Assembly: GCA_947172645.1 (NCBI GenBank)
Contig: CAMWBY010000004.1
Coordinates: forward strand, 62,001 to 126,000
Direction of reading: 5' to 3'
DNA length: 64,000 nt
Source: an uncultured Lachnospiraceae bacterium
Lineage (GTDB): Bacteria; Bacillota; Clostridia; Lachnospirales; Lachnospiraceae
Position 1 is the stretch's first letter; every line of letters starts with the position of its first letter. This document shows, piece after piece, positions 1 to 10,173 of the stretch. The position numbers and the translations under genes are program-made. The notes beneath the pieces are model-generated. The model was given only the letters and a program-made list of their open reading frames with translations. It was not told where the DNA came from and ran no database searches.

Positions 1-801
1 GCGCAGGCGACGGAGAACTTCTTTGATTTGTCCAATACGGCGCAGAGACTGGGCTTTTTCTGGGGGCTGCTTGATGAGTATGTTTTTGGGAACATGCTTC
101 CGGTATTCTTGTTGGTGATTTTGGTGCTTGGGGTGACTGTATACAGGCGGAGAGGCGTGCGGAAAAGCTTTGGGCCTGCATTCTGGATGCTTGCTTTTGC
201 CACGGTGGGATATTTTGTGACGGTGTCAAAGACAGCCCTGCTGCTTGGCGATACGTCCAACCGCTATCAGCTTCCGGTTTATGGCATGATTGTGTTGTTG
301 GTCTTTCAGGCAATAGGGGTGTTGTGGCGGCGGGTGGTATCTTTGGCGCAAGGCGGGCGGTTTGCCGGATTGACCAATGCCGGGACGGCATTGACATGCG
401 CATCTGTCACTGTCTGCCTTCTGATTGATATGACGGGCCTTGTATCCGGCAGGACAGTGTTCCTCTATCCCGAGGACAGAGAGCAGACCGCATATGCCCG
501 GGAGATGGCGGAATTGGGCGTGTCCGTGGTTTATCTTTATGAGACAGGGGCGGAATGGTGTATATGGGATGTATCCAACGAACTGTTTGCCTATCCGGAG
601 GTTTACTTTGCGGCCGTGGAGGGCGAGAGGCCGATTGTGGATGACACAATCGGGAATGCGGACGCATTGGTGGTGTATATGGCAAAGGGGGCGGATGCAG
701 GAGGGCAGGCGCAGAGGATTTTGCAGAGTAATCCGAACTTGACACAAAACAGGCTGGTATTTGGGGAGAAGTATTGCGATGTGTATTATTTTAGCAGATA
801 G
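1..801 (+). CDS. Multi-spanning membrane protein, C-terminal part (5' end outside window)
   Basis: The reading frame is open from base 1, so the start lies upstream. The visible 266 residues hold about three hydrophobic segments (around residues 25-45, 60-80 and 90-110) and a further one near 120-145. A soluble tail of about 115 residues, probably outside the membrane, follows. This layout (membrane part, then a short extracytoplasmic tail) is common in GT-C-like sugar transferases and in the other large membrane proteins of this cluster. No family motif is recognisable in the part seen. It ends 218 bases before pseB, with a promoter in between, so it belongs to an upstream transcription unit. 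Function unknown; a role in surface glycan assembly is inferred only from context. Confidence 0.6.
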   Translation, partial: AQATENFFDLSNTAQRLGFFWGLLDEYVFGNMLPVFLLVILVLGVTVYRRRGVRKSFGPAFWMLAFATVGYFVTVSKTALLLGDTSNRYQLPVYGMIVLLVFQAIGVLWRRVVSLAQGGRFAGLTNAGTALTCASVTVCLLIDMTGLVSGRTVFLYPEDREQTAYAREMAELGVSVVYLYETGAEWCIWDVSNELFAYPEVYFAAVEGERPIVDDTIGNADALVVYMAKGADAGGQAQRILQSNPNLTQNRLVFGEKYCDVYYFSR

Positions 802-908
802 ATGGAACGTCTAACGGACGAACCGTAATCGTTCAGCCTTATTATGCTGCGTAGGTATAATCGTTCTGTATGCGGTTTTATGAGTTGTGAACTTAAGATT
901 TTAGAAGA

Positions 909-937
909 TTGCAAAGGATTTTTGCCTATGTTATACT
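909..937 (+). promoter_or_regulatory. Promoter of the pseB unit
   Basis: A -35 TTGCAA (909-914) and a -10 TATACT (932-937) are separated by exactly 17 bases. Transcription would start near 944, giving a leader of about 75 bases before pseB, whose start has a GGAGG site at 1008-1012. The same -10 hexamer and 17-base spacing recur at 35975-36003 and 42867-42895. Confidence 0.65.
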
Positions 938-1019
938 AAAGGGCGATGTAAAAGGTATATTTTTCGATTGTCTGGTTAAGAAATAGGAACAGAGATATAG
1001 AGAAATTGGAGGAACGCAT

Positions 1020-2012
1020 ATGTTAAACAATAAAACGATACTGATTACCGGAGGGACGGGCTCTTTTGGCAAATGCTTCACCAAGTATGTGCTGACCCAT
1101 TATGAGCCGAAGAAAATCATCATCTATTCGCGGGACGAGTTTAAGCAGTGGCTTATGGCGGATGAATTTAAGGAGTATGAGAATAAGCTCCGTTTCTTTA
1201 TCGGTGACGTCAGGGACGTGGAGCGTTTGCGGCGTGCATGCGAGGGCGTGGATTACATTATCCATGCGGCAGCCCTGAAACAGGTTCCGGCTTGTGAATA
1301 TAACCCCAATGAGGCGATTAAGACCAATATACATGGGGCGATGAATGTGATTGACGCAGCGCTTGACAGCGGCGTGCATAAAGTGGTGGCCCTTTCTACG
1401 GATAAGGCCGTGAATCCGGTGAACCTGTATGGCGGCACGAAATTGGTATCGGACAAATTGTTTGTAGCGGCCAATGCTTATGCAGGCACGAAGGATATTA
1501 ATTTCTCTATCGTGCGTTACGGCAATGTAGCGGGCAGCCGGGGTTCTGTGATTCCGGTATTCCATAAGCTGATTAAAGAGGGGAAGACGGAAATGCCTGT
1601 CACGGACGTTCGGATGACGCGTTTCTGGATAAGTCTGACACAGGGTGTGGAGCTTGTGATTAAGGCGCTTACGGAGGCCAAAGGCGGGGAAACTTTTATC
1701 AGTAAAATCCCGTCCTTCAAGGTGACGGATTTGGCGGAGGCGATGCTGCCGGGATGCACCATTAAGGAGACGGGCATCCGTCCGGGTGAGAAACTCCATG
1801 AGATTATGGTGACGACGGAGGATTCCCACACGACCTATGAATATGATAAACATTTTATTGTTTATCCGCAGATGGTATGGAATGAGAGGCAGCAGCCTGA
1901 CCTCAGCGGCAGAAAGGTGGAGGAGGGATTCGCTTACAGTTCGGGCACGAATAAGGAATGGCTGTCGGTAGAAGATATCAGACGGCTTCTGAAAGACGTC
2001 GTGTTGGAATAG
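1020..2012 (+). CDS. pseB: UDP-N-acetylglucosamine 4,6-dehydratase (inverting), PseB
   Basis: First enzyme of CMP-pseudaminic acid synthesis: it removes water from UDP-GlcNAc and inverts C5, giving a 4-keto-L-arabino sugar in the cytoplasm. The 330-residue length fits soluble PseB/FlaA1 enzymes, without the membrane segments of the PglF type. The NAD(P)-binding GGTGSFG is at residues 11-17. The IYSRDEFKQW stretch (35-44) is typical of the PseB group. The catalytic region shows STDKA (126-130) and YGGTK (137-141), as in this extended SDR subfamily. The start has a good GGAGG site 8 bases upstream. The next pathway enzyme, pseC, follows after a 309-base structured gap; pseG, pseF and pseI lie more than 23 kb away. 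Other UDP-sugar dehydratases are less likely because those pathway partners are present. Confidence 0.9.
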   Translation: MLNNKTILITGGTGSFGKCFTKYVLTHYEPKKIIIYSRDEFKQWLMADEFKEYENKLRFFIGDVRDVERLRRACEGVDYIIHAAALKQVPACEYNPNEAIKTNIHGAMNVIDAALDSGVHKVVALSTDKAVNPVNLYGGTKLVSDKLFVAANAYAGTKDINFSIVRYGNVAGSRGSVIPVFHKLIKEGKTEMPVTDVRMTRFWISLTQGVELVIKALTEAKGGETFISKIPSFKVTDLAEAMLPGCTIKETGIRPGEKLHEIMVTTEDSHTTYEYDKHFIVYPQMVWNERQQPDLSGRKVEEGFAYSSGTNKEWLSVEDIRRLLKDVVLE

Positions 2013-2095
2013 TGTGAGAAGTACTTCTAAGACTCATGCCAGAGGGCATTTCGTCAAGAAGTACTAGGAGTTGCTTTGCAACTCCATCTCACACT
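2011..2095 (+). repeat. Compact branched inverted-repeat element between pseB and pseC
   Basis: Perfect complementary arms nest like a branched RNA or cruciform. An outer 9-bp stem pairs 2011-2019 with 2087-2095. Inside it, a 9-bp stem pairs 2020-2028 with 2057-2065 and encloses a 5-bp stem (2036-2040 with 2045-2049, AGAG loop). An 8-bp stem pairs 2067-2074 with 2078-2085. Almost no unpaired bases lie between stems. The element starts at the pseB stop codon. It resembles a mobile intergenic repeat or a structured RNA; no known RNA family was recognised. Confidence 0.6.
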
Positions 2096-2124
2096 GGAGA
2101 ATGCCTAAAATACGGGCATTCTCC
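2096..2124 (+). repeat. Perfect 10-bp hairpin downstream of the branched element
   Basis: GGAGAATGCC (2096-2105) pairs perfectly with GGCATTCTCC (2115-2124) across a 9-base loop. It abuts the branched element to the left and overlaps the dispersed repeat to the right. No T-run follows, so it is not a standard terminator. Confidence 0.55.
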
Positions 2125-2168
2125 GCATAGATTTGAGATTCCGCTTAAGCGGAATCATGGAGGTTAGG
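2121..2168 (+). repeat. Dispersed hairpin repeat, copy A
   Basis: About 48 bases containing the perfect palindrome GATTCCGCTT/AAGCGGAATC (2137-2156), followed by ATGGAGGTTAG. A second copy with the same order of blocks and only a few changes lies on the opposite strand at 18981-19028. The arms are conserved while the loop differs (TTAA here, 3 bases there), as expected for an element maintained for its fold. Confidence 0.7.
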
Positions 2169-2321
2169 GTGAAAATGAATTAGGGCTGTTGCGAAATGAC
2201 GGATTCAAACAATATGTGGCGTTGTTGTCATGTATGGCAGAGCTATATAGTGTTGGTTTACGGCATTGTGCGGCAGCCTGTTCTTGTCAGGGGGTTATTG
2301 TTCAGATTCGGAGGAATGCAT

Positions 2322-3530
2322 ATGAGACAAGCTGTAGTTAATAAACCTGCTATCGAGGGTGGGACGCCCGCCAGGGCGGAGAAAATTTATTATGGGCATC
2401 AATACATAGACGACGCCGATATCCAGGCTGTGGTGGACGTATTGAGGAGCGAGGCGTTGACCTGTGGCCCGAAAATCAAGGAACTGGAGGATAAGCTGTG
2501 CCGGATAACCGGGGCAAAATACGCGGTGGTGTGCAGCAACGGCACGGCGGCGCTTCATATGGCGGCGCTTGCCGCCGGAGTCGGCGAGGGAGATGAAGTG
2601 ATTACGACGCCTATCACCTTCGCGGCTTCTGCGAACTGTGCGCTGTACTGTGGCGCAAGACCGGTTTTTGTAGATATAGACCCGGAGACTTACAATATAG
2701 ACCCGGAGAAAGTGGAAGCGGCAATCACGGAGAGGACGAAAGCTGTCGTCGCGGTAGATTACACAGGGCAGTCCGTGGCGTTAGACCCGTTGAAAAAGAT
2801 ATGTGAAAAGCATGGCCTTACGCTAATTGAGGACGGCGCCCATGTGATTGGCACAAAATATAAGGGTAAGGCAAACGGGTCCATTGCTGACATGACGACA
2901 TTCAGCTTTCATCCGGTGAAGACGGTTACCGGAGGGGAAGGCGGCGCGGTGCTGACAAATGATGAGGCATTATACCGGAAACTGCTTCTTTACCGTACCC
3001 ATGGTATCACGAGGGATGCAGACTTGATGGAGCATGAGCCGGAAGGGGCATGGTATTACGAACAGGTAGATTTAGGATACAATTACCGCATAACGGATAT
3101 TCAGGCGGCGCTTATTATCAGTCAGCTTGATAAGCTTCAGATGTTCAGTGAGAGAAGGAAAGAGATTGTAGCGCGGTACAATGAGGCGTTTGGTAAACTG
3201 CCTATGTTATTTGTGCAGAAGGAGATTCCTGAATCTGATACCACAAGACATCTGTATATTTTACGTATTATTCCGGAGAAGCTTCGTATTGACAGAAGAC
3301 AGTTTTTTGATGCGCTTGCCGCAGAGAATGTATGCTGTAACGTGCACTATATACCTACTTATTATTTTCCATATTATGAGAAATTAGGCTACAGGAGAGG
3401 TTTGTGCCCGAATGCGGAGAAGTTATATGAGGAGATGATTTCCCTGCCGCTTTACTATGCCATGACGGACGAGGATGTGGAGAGCGTTATTGAGGCTGTG
3501 ACGAAGATTGCGGTATATTATGGGAAATAG
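2322..3530 (+). CDS. pseC: UDP-4-amino-4,6-dideoxy-N-acetyl-beta-L-altrosamine transaminase, PseC
   Basis: Second Pse enzyme: a PLP-dependent DegT/DnrJ aminotransferase that uses glutamate to aminate the 4-keto product of PseB. The ATG at 2322 is chosen because GGAGG (2310-2314) precedes it; the frame could extend to 2196, but without a ribosome site. The protein is then 402 residues. It carries TCGPKIKELE near 47, the acidic residue Asp171 in EDGAH that contacts the PLP ring nitrogen, and the Schiff-base Lys200 in SFHPVKTVTGGEGG. The HPVKTVTGGEGG form is typical of PseC rather than WecE or PglE types. It sits directly downstream of pseB, which supports the specificity. Confidence 0.88.
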   Translation: MRQAVVNKPAIEGGTPARAEKIYYGHQYIDDADIQAVVDVLRSEALTCGPKIKELEDKLCRITGAKYAVVCSNGTAALHMAALAAGVGEGDEVITTPITFAASANCALYCGARPVFVDIDPETYNIDPEKVEAAITERTKAVVAVDYTGQSVALDPLKKICEKHGLTLIEDGAHVIGTKYKGKANGSIADMTTFSFHPVKTVTGGEGGAVLTNDEALYRKLLLYRTHGITRDADLMEHEPEGAWYYEQVDLGYNYRITDIQAALIISQLDKLQMFSERRKEIVARYNEAFGKLPMLFVQKEIPESDTTRHLYILRIIPEKLRIDRRQFFDALAAENVCCNVHYIPTYYFPYYEKLGYRRGLCPNAEKLYEEMISLPLYYAMTDEDVESVIEAVTKIAVYYGK

Positions 3531-3543
3531 AGTGGAAAATAAC

Positions 3544-5781
3544 ATGCAGACGAGAGAAACGTCGTTGAAAACACAAATATTGTATATTGTTGTAGTATGC
3601 CTTGTCGTTCTGTTGCTGTGGTTTGGCAACGAGGGAGATAAGCCGTTAGTCTATACGGGAGCCAGCCTGCATCATTCGGTGGGATTGGTTGATTCTGAAA
3701 GCAACCTGGTGGTGCGGGAATCCGTAGCAATGAACGGGACAGTATCTAGCACGCCGAAATATATTATGAACAGGGGCACTTATACAGCCAGACTTGCTTA
3801 TGTGGCGGAGGAATCCGGTTCCGTACTGGAACTTTGGGAACAGGGAAGGAAGATTGCCGCCTGGCCGATTGACCAAACCCAGACAGAGTTAGATGCAGAG
3901 TTTACGCTGTCAAAAGATGCGAAGCAGCTACAGTTGCAGGTTAATTACAGCGGTAAGGGAGCGTTAACTATCAGCGAATTAAGGCTTATACCGCGCACGA
4001 TGTTCTATTCGGACACCTATTTCTTTATCGCGCTGTTTCTTGTAGCGAGTTTGTTTGTCTGGTTTTGTCTGGTCAAAGGCAGGCTAAATCTTCGCCAGGA
4101 GCAGCTTGTGGATTACAGTATTATTCTGGGAGTGGCATTGCTTGCCATGTCGCCGATGATGCAGACATATCTCTATAACGGTGATGACTTATGCTATCAT
4201 TTGGCCAGGTTGGAGGGGCTGAAGGACGGTATCCTTGACGGACAGATTCCGGTTAATATCCAGCCCGAAGGATTACAGGGAAACGGGTATATGAATGCGA
4301 TGTATCCTTATCTGTTTCTGTACATAGGGGCGTTTTTGCGCATTTGCCGTGTGTCAATCGCTTTATCATATAAAGTCATTGTTTTTTTGGCCAATCTAGG
4401 TTCCGCGGTCTGTGCTTACGTTGCTATGAAATCTATGTGTAAATCCCGCCGCAGCATCATGTTAGCGGTGGTATTATATACGCTGATGCCATACCGGTTT
4501 ACAAATATCTTTTCCAGAGGCGACCTGGGGGAGACGCTGGCTTTGGTATTCTGGCCGCTTGTCATTGCCGGGCTTTACCATGTTGTTATGGGGGAGCGGA
4601 AATACTGGTATTTTCTTGTCATCGGGTTCAGCGGCGCACTGCAGAGCCATATACTGAGCGTGGCTTTTGTGGCGGCAATATGTGTGGTGACGGCGCTTGT
4701 ATATTGTGTACGCATTGTGAAAGAAAAACGGTACATAGAAATCGGTAAGGCGGCGGGTGTATCTCTGCTTCTTAACCTATGGTATCTGGCTCCGTTTTTA
4801 TATTATTATTTTGGGGACAACCTGAGTACAGGCGCGCTTAGGTGGAGCGGATATTTTGAGCAGTCCATCAATCCTTCTAATTTTACGCAGAGCGTCAGCC
4901 TGTATAATAAGCAGTATTTTTCATTGGGGCTTGCACTTTTTGGGTGCGTAGGCATCGGGGTAATCTGGCTTTTATGTGAGAAAAAAGAGCGTAAACGAGA
5001 TATGGACGGGTATCTGATGTATCTGTTTGTGCTTGGATTCCTTTTAGCCTATATGACGACGGGATATTTCCCAAATAAAGCGTTTCTTGAAAACGATTTG
5101 TTTTTTAACGTGGCGACGATGATTCAGTTTCCGTGGAGGTTCTTAGGGCCAGCGTCCGCCTGTTTCCTTTTTGTGGGCGCATTGGGGCTTGCCCGTTCGG
5201 AAATTCTGAAACCGTACAGGAATATTATTTTTGCGCTGTTGGTGGGGCTGAACCTTCTGGTGATTATATCGGTACCGACGGATAATAACCATATGCCTTA
5301 TACCAATGCGGAAGCGGTGGTCTCGAAAGGGCATGAGAGCAAGCTTGCGGCGAATATCGGCCTGTTTTATCCTCATGAATGGCGGCTTGACGGAGCCGGG
5401 GACGAGCGGCTTGTTTCCAGTGTGATTACGTCGGATATCGAAAGCATTACAATTCACGATTATCAGAAAAAAGGAACGAAGGCTGTGGCGGTCTATACGG
5501 CCACGGCGGACGGAGAGTATATTGAATTGCCTATCCAGAGCTATAAGGGCTACCGGGCGTATGATGAGAATGGAAAGAGGCTTTCATTTGAACGGGGTAT
5601 GGGCGCGAGAATCTGGGTTCCGGTACAAGGAGACGGTAAGCAGCATACAATCTATGTCCGCTATGGCCCGCATCCACTGTTTATAACAGCGAATATTATT
5701 TCTGCATTGACAATTGCAGGTTTGATATGGCGGCGGAGGAAAAGCCGCATGACGGAAGATGGAGAAGCAATAGAAGAGTAG
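3544..5781 (+). CDS. YfhO-like multi-spanning membrane protein, possible GT-C glycosyltransferase
   Basis: A 745-residue protein from the ATG at 3544; the frame is open to 3508, but upstream starts have no ribosome site. One N-terminal membrane segment (about residues 10-25) is followed by an extracytoplasmic domain (30-155). Around eleven membrane segments span 160-600, and a C-terminal beta-rich extracytoplasmic domain (600-720) precedes a last membrane segment and a basic tail. The first loop after the membrane part has GDDLCYHLARLEGL and later SRGDLGETLAL, resembling the YfhO/6-pyruvoyl-tetrahydropterin-synthase-related membrane family. Members are thought to move sugars from lipid carriers to outer acceptors. 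It ends at the bidirectional terminator at 5797-5828. The substrate cannot be told. Confidence 0.6.
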   Translation: MQTRETSLKTQILYIVVVCLVVLLLWFGNEGDKPLVYTGASLHHSVGLVDSESNLVVRESVAMNGTVSSTPKYIMNRGTYTARLAYVAEESGSVLELWEQGRKIAAWPIDQTQTELDAEFTLSKDAKQLQLQVNYSGKGALTISELRLIPRTMFYSDTYFFIALFLVASLFVWFCLVKGRLNLRQEQLVDYSIILGVALLAMSPMMQTYLYNGDDLCYHLARLEGLKDGILDGQIPVNIQPEGLQGNGYMNAMYPYLFLYIGAFLRICRVSIALSYKVIVFLANLGSAVCAYVAMKSMCKSRRSIMLAVVLYTLMPYRFTNIFSRGDLGETLALVFWPLVIAGLYHVVMGERKYWYFLVIGFSGALQSHILSVAFVAAICVVTALVYCVRIVKEKRYIEIGKAAGVSLLLNLWYLAPFLYYYFGDNLSTGALRWSGYFEQSINPSNFTQSVSLYNKQYFSLGLALFGCVGIGVIWLLCEKKERKRDMDGYLMYLFVLGFLLAYMTTGYFPNKAFLENDLFFNVATMIQFPWRFLGPASACFLFVGALGLARSEILKPYRNIIFALLVGLNLLVIISVPTDNNHMPYTNAEAVVSKGHESKLAANIGLFYPHEWRLDGAGDERLVSSVITSDIESITIHDYQKKGTKAVAVYTATADGEYIELPIQSYKGYRAYDENGKRLSFERGMGARIWVPVQGDGKQHTIYVRYGPHPLFITANIISALTIAGLIWRRRKSRMTEDGEAIEE

Positions 5782-9251: not shown

Positions 9252-10173
9252 TCATCTGTTTGACGTACTTTTTTTGCGGTCCGGGTCGTATTTTTCCGGG
9301 TGTTTCCTGAACTGTTGGGGTGAAATACCTGTAATCTGCCTGAAATTACGGTTGAAGGTGGATAAGGTTGTGAAACCTGACCTGGCGGCGATGGCGTTGA
9401 CGGAATCGTTTGTTCTTAGAAGCTCATAACAAGCTTTTTTGATGCGCATCTGGTTGATGAATTTGACCGGGGACATTTTCATGTATTCTTGAAAAACCCT
9501 CCTGAAATGGACTTCGCTGATATGGCATATCTGGGCGAGGTCTTTGATTTTAAGGGGATGGTCTAACTCCCTGGTGATGTAATCCAGGGCAGGGGATATG
9601 ATGGTATTATTGGCTGCCGCAGCAGGATATTCGTTTTCAGCGGCGGCGCGGTTCCATCTTGCAATGCGGATAAGGAGGGCAAGGGCTAATCCCCGGGCCT
9701 CTTCCTGGCAAAGCTCTTTGCGTTCTCTCATAGTCTCTATGATTTTACGGATTAAAGATGCCGTTTCCTGGTGGTCTTCTGCTTTTACGAGATGCGGCCG
9801 GCAGTTGATGTCAAAAATCAGCTTTTCGAATTGGGGGGGGGGTATTTTTATACAGTGTAGATAACAATTCATTGACGTCAATCATCAGATATTCCCAGGA
9901 GCAGCCTGTCTTATCCATAATTTTAATCATATGAGGAATGTTTGACGGGATGATTGTGAACATATTGCTGCCGTAAGGGATTGTCTCGCTGCCTAGCGTC
10001 ATATTGCCATGCCCATAATAACAGTAGCCTATTTCCATATAGTTATGGAAATGGAGACTGTCCTGTTTGGTGTTGCTGTCTGGCGGGTAATTCTGCTCTA
10101 ACATAGCAACTACTGCGCTGCCAAGAGGCATATTGTAAGTTCTGTAACTAACTGGCGGTGTCTGTTTGTTCAT
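9252..10173 (-). pseudogene. AraC-family regulator split by a 10-G tract (phase-off or pseudogene)
   Basis: Two frames make one AraC regulator: an N-terminal cupin-like sensor domain (from the ATG at 10173) and a C-terminal double helix-turn-helix domain (ending at 9252). They join at a run of ten G (ten C in the sense strand) at 9833-9842. With ten, the first frame stops shortly after the tract. With nine, it reads through into QFEKLIFDIN and on to the DNA-binding domain, giving about 306 residues, normal for the family. The DNA-binding half looks intact (ISEVHFRRVFQEYMKMSP, then FTTLSTFNRNFRQITGIS). It lies 41 bases after the second AraC gene and before the transporter operon, so it probably controls sugar uptake. 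Phase variation, decay or a sequencing error are all possible. Confidence 0.8.
9833..9842. repeat. Homopolymeric G10 tract inside the AraC gene
   Basis: Ten consecutive G, the longest homopolymer noticed in the window. The number present places the two halves of the AraC gene out of frame; a change of one base restores the frame. Such tracts are classic sites of slipped-strand mispairing. Confidence 0.85.

What the first reader, a model, noticed from the sequence alone, without database searches (positions are those of the whole stretch)
2011..2168. Compact multi-stem intergenic element between pseB and pseC
Within 160 bases there are a perfect 9-bp stem enclosing two further perfect stems with almost no linkers, then a perfect 10-bp hairpin, then a 20-base palindrome. 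So much perfect complementarity is far above chance. It sits inside the pse unit and could be a mobile repeat, an RNA processing or attenuation element, or an unnamed structured RNA.
Basis: seen in the sequence. Interest (0 to 1): 0.7.

Follow-up and report, generated by a model that had tools for sequence, protein, structure and literature searches.

The report
Stop-codon-anchored modular hairpin repeat
Between two sugar-synthesis genes lies one copy of an apparently undescribed family of strongly folding repeats of Lachnospiraceae bacteria that mostly sit directly behind the stop codons of genes and nearly always run in the gene's direction; their stems change sequence but keep pairing, so they may be spreading modules that punctuate operons.

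Summary
The stems are real (RNA z -7.6, DNA z -13.4), and the element is a repeat. Its genome has 37 BLAST matches, itself included; 41 of 60 same-genus genomes have one. Paired arms change together: 23 of 43 pairs show double changes among 32 copies. Rfam has no match. It is modular: A (multi-stem), B, an optional hairpin, C with GGAGG.

The surprise is placement. Of 148 partly related contexts 3 lie antisense to both neighbours; of 123 with a same-strand upstream gene, 90 start within -25..+5 nt of its stop, 74 in two exact registers. In the window its first three bases are pseB's TAG. A sister type fills ribosomal-protein operons: 38 of 41 hits start -3..+2 nt from a stop. Presence turns over: pseB-pseC has it in 1 of 30 species, ybbR-glmM in 2 of 30. 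No intrinsic terminator was found here and no Y1 transposase in this genome.

Best reading: a dispersed REP/BOX-like repeat acting in mRNA as a post-stop structure. Identity is well supported; function is inferred; how it spreads is unknown.

The parts
1020..2012 (+). pseB, the upstream gene; its TAG stop (2010-2012) is the first three bases of the repeat
   Evidence: ORF; NCBIfam TIGR03589, 534.8 bits against a cut-off of 407.75
2010..2167 (+). the whole repeat copy, modules A, B and C
   Evidence: fold; R1 covers 2010-2125 with 133.7 bits; other copies match the whole stretch. The 3' end is approximate
2011..2095 (+). module A: 9-bp outer stem 2011-2019/2087-2095 enclosing two stems
   Evidence: covariation
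2020..2065 (+). inner stem 2020-2028/2057-2065 with nested hairpin 2036-2049
   Evidence: helices 2-4
2067..2085 (+). third hairpin of module A, absent or with another stem sequence in other copies
   Evidence: (5 of 32 copies lack it)
2096..2124 (+). module B: 10-bp hairpin GGAGAATGCC/GGCATTCTCC
   Evidence: nearly invariant
2137..2156 (+). module C hairpin: 20-base palindrome
   Evidence: other copies, some with a different stem sequence
2157..2167 (+). ATGGAGGTTAG, conserved 3' end of module C with a ribosome-binding-site-like GGAGG (2159-2163)
   Evidence: use as a ribosome-binding site at this locus not shown
2322..3530 (+). pseC, the downstream gene, likely start at 2322
   Evidence: NCBIfam TIGR03588, 478.4 bits against a cut-off of 423.5; offset 309 from the pseB stop

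Best explanation
This is one copy of a dispersed, modular, structured repeat family of Lachnospiraceae that mostly sits immediately behind stop codons, in the direction of transcription. SHOWN: many copies; modular make-up; stems that change but stay complementary; nearly sense-only placement; exact stop-codon registers; presence or absence at single junctions among sister species. INFERRED: it is transcribed as part of the mRNA and works there as a strong post-stop structure. It forms behind the terminating ribosome, hinders scanning or re-initiating ribosomes so that the next gene depends on its own ribosome-binding site (in a few copies the GGAGG that module C carries), and gives the mRNA a defined boundary that resists exonucleases or is cut by an endonuclease, so that neighbouring genes of one operon can be set to different levels. 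UNKNOWN: how new copies arise; no mobility enzyme was linked to it. The first part is close to certain; the figure below is for the whole statement.
For: Copies. Structure. Placement: of 148 contexts 95 lie between two genes of the element's own direction and 3 between two antisense genes; 90 of 123 with a same-strand upstream gene start within -25..+5 nt of its stop. Ribosomal-protein operons: 40 of 41 hits in operon sense, 38 of 41 within -3..+2 nt of a stop, and 54 of 55 elements in 17 of 20 genomes assigned to seven junctions only (S14 junctions), with compensated stems among species at the same junction. Junction pseB-pseC: 26 of 29 other species have a different hairpin, GGACATG..CATGTCC, in the gap, which this species lacks, so a folded junction is common while its sequence is not. 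Published mechanisms that fit: structures just behind stop codons limit re-initiation (PMC7518266; abstract and passages); E. coli REP within 15 nt of a stop stall ribosomes (PMC12306157; passages); intercistronic stem-loops set cleavage and stability in a clostridial operon (PMC10311766; abstract). No intrinsic terminator in 800-3700.
Against: No expression data. Stems are almost pure Watson-Crick: 84 G-U cells against 4927 Watson-Crick in 138 intact copies, and A-C mismatches (139) outnumber G-U over all positions; only after leaving out five positions, chosen after seeing the counts, does G-U exceed A-C (103 to 59, p = 7e-4; 20 to 11, p = 0.15, in the most intact copies). So RNA-level selection is weakly supported at best. 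Post-stop structures are reported as depleted behind genes that are not last in their operon (PMC7518266), where most of these copies lie. Presence at a given junction is volatile (1 of 30 and 2 of 30).
Confidence: 0.5

Rival explanations
1. Selfish miniature mobile DNA (MITE/REP/BOX-like): the hairpins serve mobility as folded DNA, the unknown enzyme that moves it prefers TA-rich sites such as TAA or TAG in one orientation, and survivors behind stop codons are simply the harmless ones.
For: Dispersed copies and single modules in one genome; presence in 1 of 30 and 2 of 30 species at two junctions; tandem copies; the DNA strand folds as well; little or no strand asymmetry of mismatches.
Against: No Y1 transposase in this genome although 24 of 60 genus genomes have one; other transposase families were not searched. 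A preference for TA sites does not by itself explain why 90 of 123 lie at the stop codon rather than elsewhere in the intergenic space, nor the recurrence at seven ribosomal-protein junctions. Copies in the genome differ by 7-25% over most of the length yet keep their pairing, which decaying neutral copies should not.
Confidence: 0.3
2. A regulon-type cis element: a specific protein or small RNA binds the conserved loops and module B and coordinates the genes that carry it.
For: Module B and the loop-proximal bases of module A are nearly invariant; the sister type keeps TCTAAGGCG..CGCCTAAGA.
Against: The neighbouring genes are functionally mixed, presence at a junction is volatile, and no partner protein was identified.
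Confidence: 0.1
3. By-product of replication template switching, which keeps making perfect palindromes without any function for host or element.
For: Multi-base Watson-Crick to Watson-Crick changes with few G-U intermediates; template switching is known to do this (PMC8794818; abstract).
Against: Does not explain the shared loops and module order, the sense placement or the stop-codon register.
Confidence: 0.07

Closest known systems
BOX elements of Streptococcus pneumoniae (PMC3049150; abstract and sections 5 and 6 read)
   Same: Short, modular, dispersed, predicted to fold as RNA; modules also occur alone and in varying number; mobility enzyme not identified by that paper's distribution data.
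   Different: Different module sequences by recollection (not compared by a call). BOX follows the coding bias of the strands (60.8% on the leading strand) and is over-represented between convergent genes; the present family lies mostly between co-directional genes and at the stop codon.
REP/BIME sequences of E. coli (PMC12306157; passages only; the 2015 Mol Cell study of REP and translation known only through it)
   Same: Palindromic repeats behind genes; those within 15 nt of a stop codon are reported to stall ribosomes.
   Different: Only 446 of 4072 predicted E. coli REP lie within 15 nt of a stop in that paper; here 90 of 123 lie within -25..+5 nt. The family's genome has no Y1 transposase, the enzyme class of RAYT.
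Ribosome termination structure, RTS (PMC7518266; abstract and passages)
   Same: A stable mRNA structure directly behind the stop codon, proposed to insulate translation.
   Different: RTS is a class by position and stability, not a homologous repeat family; it is reported as depleted inside operons.
Intercistronic stem-loops of the cip-cel operon of Ruminiclostridium cellulolyticum (PMC10311766; abstract)
   Same: Stem-loops between genes of a clostridial operon that set cleavage sites and stability and thereby stoichiometry.
   Different: One operon; no dispersed repeat or stop-codon register in the abstract; processing not tested here.
TAACTGA direct repeats of Beggiatoaceae (PMC4679880; passages)
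   Same: Dispersed intergenic repeats, mostly of one orientation towards a gene; some overlap a stop codon and carry stops in all frames.
   Different: Unstructured heptamer arrays placed towards start codons, not multi-stem elements behind stops.

Membership tests
Rfam families (release 15) | covariance-model score at or above the family's gathering threshold | tested here: not met
   0 matches in the whole window; at relaxed thresholds only three weak antisense matches at 2032-2209; in six ribosomal-operon loci only the S10-Clostridia leader; one weak miRNA match in eight further loci
Rho-independent terminator or attenuator | GC-rich stem followed by a T run | tested here: not met
   0 terminator-like sites in 800-3700; other copies were not scanned
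IS200/IS605-derived or RAYT/REP elements | Y1 transposase in the genome acting on the ends | tested here: not met
   no PF01797 match in G000, a draft of 98% completeness; 24 of 60 genus genomes have one
BOX elements | boxA/boxB/boxC sequence modules | not tested
   no BOX sequence was compared; the resemblance is of architecture
MITE | terminal inverted repeats and target-site duplication | tested here: inconclusive
   no terminal inverted repeat is apparent in the oriented copies (by eye); ends could not be fixed from empty sites of other species
Ribosome termination structure (as a position class) | stable structure directly behind the stop codon | tested here: met
   stop overlaps the outer stem in the window; first 40 nt behind the pseB stop fold at -6.7 kcal/mol, at the paper's -6 limit, and the whole element far below shuffles
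Ribosome termination structure (as a mechanism) | lowers re-initiation on the downstream gene | not testable with these tools
   needs a reporter or ribosome profiling
Small structured interspersed repeats (general class) | many dispersed intergenic copies with a common fold | tested here: met

The most novel reading that the evidence does not exclude
A movable post-stop RNA module: a family of multi-stem cassettes that installs itself exactly behind stop codons, in transcript sense, bringing its own stop at the 5' end and in a few copies the ribosome-binding site of the next gene at the 3' end, and so re-punctuates operons, ribosomal-protein operons included; its stems are rewritten by one-step Watson-Crick to Watson-Crick changes while the architecture stays.
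Probability: 0.33. Interest if true: 0.82.

Novelty: new variant of a known kind. Interest (0 to 1): 0.62.

Why it matters
Small structured repeats are known in many bacteria, but in the examples read here they are scattered at varying distances from genes and on both strands. A homologous family tied to stop codons in transcript sense, inside essential operons and with vivid compensatory change, would offer many natural experiments on what an RNA structure behind a stop codon does and on how such structures arise and spread. Junctions with and without the element among sister species (pseB-pseC, ybbR-glmM) make the effect on neighbouring genes directly testable, and the family is unannotated in Rfam.

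Tried and rejected
Known RNA family: no match. Intrinsic terminator: not found in the window stretch. IS200/IS605 or RAYT mobility: not supported in this genome; other transposases and reverse transcriptases were not searched. Phage or plasmid cargo: no match among phage or plasmid records; one viral contig with two tandem copies for the module-B pattern. Strand test for RNA-level selection: equivocal. Module C as usual start signal of the next gene: dropped; a loose pattern gave 37 sites, several of them spurious, and 6 had a start codon opening a long frame within 12 nt, one of these being a TTG that runs into a second C module. That the outer stem of ribosomal-operon copies copies its flank: bases behind the S8 stop recur in species with and without an element and pair with the element (TGGAC in L267, L274, L278 with and L271, L276 without; AGCC in L263 with and L269, L280 without), but nothing like it is seen at ybbR-glmM; left open. 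Orientation set by replication instead of transcription: argued against by 3 antisense of 98 co-directional contexts, an inference without a replication map.

Limits of the counts. The second alignment (99 distinct rows) shares some copies with the first and was fitted to the model. One search used 85 of the 101 matches and 41 of the 49 (50 bits or more), 20 loci, own-genome loci and the window copy; exact duplicates were removed, but related species remain, so the 148 contexts are not independent. At ybbR-glmM 30 of the 60 searched genomes and at pseB-pseC 30 of the 77 were fetched, the best-scoring ones. One search counts matches up to E 0.05. For one search I took the 49 sense-strand R2 matches of 40 bits or more out of the 84, plus six R1 matches; the 35 left out are mostly antisense mirror images or weaker. 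Gene calls are simple longest-frame calls; one search assigns 11 S14 junctions to the gene before it, corrected. The five positions left out were chosen after seeing the counts. The tRNA control is six tRNAs.

Led nowhere: a loose regular expression, a type II regular expression with no hits, two tRNA parsing scripts (in part, 57) before the third worked.

Full report
What was checked. The stems described for 2011-2168 are present as stated: a 9-bp outer stem enclosing two stems, a 10-bp hairpin and a 20-base palindrome. The fold is far beyond shuffled sequence on either strand and as DNA (z -7.60, -10.77, -13.38). The neighbours are pseB (TAG stop at 2010-2012) and pseC (likely start 2322), by NCBIfam equivalogs above cut-off and the tblastn offset. 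There is no Rfam match in the window and only three weak antisense ones at relaxed thresholds.

It is a repeat family. In its own genome (G000, 3.87 Mb, 46 contigs) the 171-base query has 37 blastn matches including itself; 10 of them cover at least 150 of the 171 bases at 75-100% identity, the others are shorter, many of them single modules. A covariance model of modules A and B built from 32 copies (R1) finds 22. Of 98 genomes searched 42 have a match: 41 of 60 of the same genus, own included, and 1 of 38 others. Over 196 genomes of the order R1 hits 5, own included. That the window's own genome is of this family is inferred: a sister genome's locus (L053) and a named Lachnospiraceae record (L131) show the same copy with the same flank. 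Phage and plasmid records gave no match, viral contigs one.

Modular anatomy. Oriented copies read: a stop-like start, mostly TAG; module A (outer stem, inner stem with nested hairpin, optional third hairpin whose sequence is exchangeable, such as GGAGTTGC/GCAACTCC or AGTCTGC/GCAGACT); module B (GAGAATGCC..GGCATTCTC); an optional CAGACAAG hairpin; module C (palindrome and ATGGAGGTTAG). Modules occur together, alone or in tandem. Module C directly precedes the start codon of a long frame in only a few copies.

Stems change together. On 32 copies 94.7% of the pair cells are standard, 23 of 43 pairs show changes on both sides, and 137 cells do so, against 41.3 in shuffles and 2-11 when the partners are slid. 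A second set of 99 distinct rows, partly the same copies and fitted to the model, gives 93.4%, 39 of 43 and 437 against 131 in shuffles and 21-67 when slid. Ten clusters of homologous upstream genes (among 99 compared) carry the element in more than one locus; some are near-identical strains, but several show different, still complementary stems behind the same gene (L180/L183; L123 against L086/L145; L103/L107/L183).

DNA or RNA? Nearly all pairs are Watson-Crick. In 138 intact copies 84 of 5296 cells are G-U and 139 A-C; in the second set alone 63 are G-U and 117 A-C. The A-C excess comes from a few positions with fixed variants. Leaving out five of them, chosen after seeing the counts, G-U exceeds A-C by 103 to 59 over 163 copies (p = 7e-4), by 61 to 37 in copies at least 85% Watson-Crick (p = 0.02) and by 20 to 11 in copies at least 92% (p = 0.15). 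Six tRNAs from the same loci give 14 G-U and 0 A-C in 136 cells. So there is at most a weak sign of sense-strand RNA selection. One-step double changes, as by template switching (PMC8794818, abstract), or exchange of whole stems fit much of the variation, and covariation alone does not prove RNA function here.

Placement. Among 148 contexts (exact duplicates removed, related species kept) the element runs with both neighbours in 95, with the upstream gene only in 22, with the downstream gene only in 16, with neither in 3, and 12 have one neighbour called (8 of these in the element's direction, 4 not). Of 123 with a same-strand upstream gene, 90 start within -25..+5 nt of its stop, in sharp registers: 44 at -3 (the element's first three bases are the stop), 30 at 0 (stop immediately before), 10 at -8, 5 at -21, 1 at +4. 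Of the rest, some follow another element (GGTTAG then TGTGAG) and at least one a promoter-like box (L120: TTGACA, 18 bases, TATAAT, by eye); some are probably missed gene calls. Of 98 contexts whose two genes point the same way 3 are antisense; an orientation set by replication should give more (inference).

Turnover. At ybbR-glmM the own genome and one other of 30 species have an element, both directly behind the ybbR stop (the second is degenerate), and 28 have plain gaps of 15-84 nt. At pseB-pseC, neighbours in 29 of 30 loci (one is cut by its contig end), R1 finds the element only in the window's species. 26 of the 29 others have a GGACATG..CATGTCC hairpin there instead, one mismatch allowed, which is absent here.

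A sister type in ribosomal-protein operons. In 20 fetched S10-spc stretches R1 gave 41 hits up to E 0.05, 40 in operon sense, 38 of 41 starting -3..+2 nt from a stop. Most are a second type, AGAATTTCTAAGGCG..CGCCTAAGAAATACTA inside a variable outer stem and followed by another hairpin; 13 of 22 pairs show double changes among 28 copies. With its model R2, 49 sense matches of 40 bits or more and six further R1 matches give 55 elements in 17 of 20 operons; 54 of them can be assigned and lie behind L23, L2, S17, S14, S8, S5 or SecY only, one had no gene call (S14). At the S14 junction 10 of 22 pairs differ by compensated changes among 8 species, with 4 broken cells of 176. The own genome has 12 R2 matches, some overlapping R1's. 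In the order 6 of 196 genomes have one, one of them in another family, where the core hairpin lies within long inverted repeats of 27-28 nt arms.

Mechanism. No terminator-like site is seen and no Y1 transposase in this genome. The exact stop register and the sense placement point to the mRNA and the terminating ribosome. Published mechanisms that fit are structures directly behind stop codons that limit re-initiation (PMC7518266, abstract and passages) and REP within 15 nt of a stop that stall ribosomes (PMC12306157, passages); intercistronic stem-loops that set cleavage and stability are known in a clostridial operon (PMC10311766, abstract). Against this: no expression data, weak strand asymmetry, and the report that post-stop structures are depleted behind genes that are not last in their operon. 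A selfish repeat with a preference for stop-codon sites remains the main rival.

Comparison and novelty. BOX (PMC3049150, abstract and sections 5-6) is nearest in build but not in placement. Two surveys of stem-loop repeat families (PMC1590033 and PMC2267715, passages) find structured families near gene ends in 40 genomes; the parts of their species tables that I saw name no Lachnospiraceae. Searches of an open-licence library (listings only, apart from the papers named) showed no description of this family; a subscription paper could exist. I rate it a new variant of a known kind: a structured interspersed repeat set apart by its tie to stop codons.

Noticed in passing
L261-L280 (S10-spc operons of 20 genus genomes): A second, related type of element (model R2) recurs behind the same few ribosomal-protein genes (L23, L2, S17, S14, S8, S5, SecY) in different species with different but complementary stems.
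   Followed up: partly
L290-L318, gap behind pseB: A conserved GGACATG..CATGTCC hairpin, sometimes with a T run, lies between pseB and pseC in 26 of 29 sister species and is missing in the window's species.
   Followed up: partly
L325 1444-1614 and L330 746-920: In a genome of another family the same core hairpin lies within inverted repeats of 27-28 nt whose arms differ between loci but match each other (100% and 96%).
   Followed up: partly
L263-L280, behind the S8 stop: Bases directly behind the stop (TGGAC, AGCC) recur in species with and without an element, and the element's outer stem pairs with them: empty sites may be deletions, or the stem is matched to its flank.
   Followed up: no
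L143, L148, L095, downstream of the element: Degenerate module-B-like units repeat in tandem behind the element.
   Followed up: no
L120 1470-1585: A copy that starts directly at the end of a promoter-like TATAAT box instead of behind a stop codon.
   Followed up: no
L319 (viral contig, about 9300-9750): Two tandem copies in the only viral contig that matches the module-B pattern; virus or host fragment not decided.
   Followed up: no
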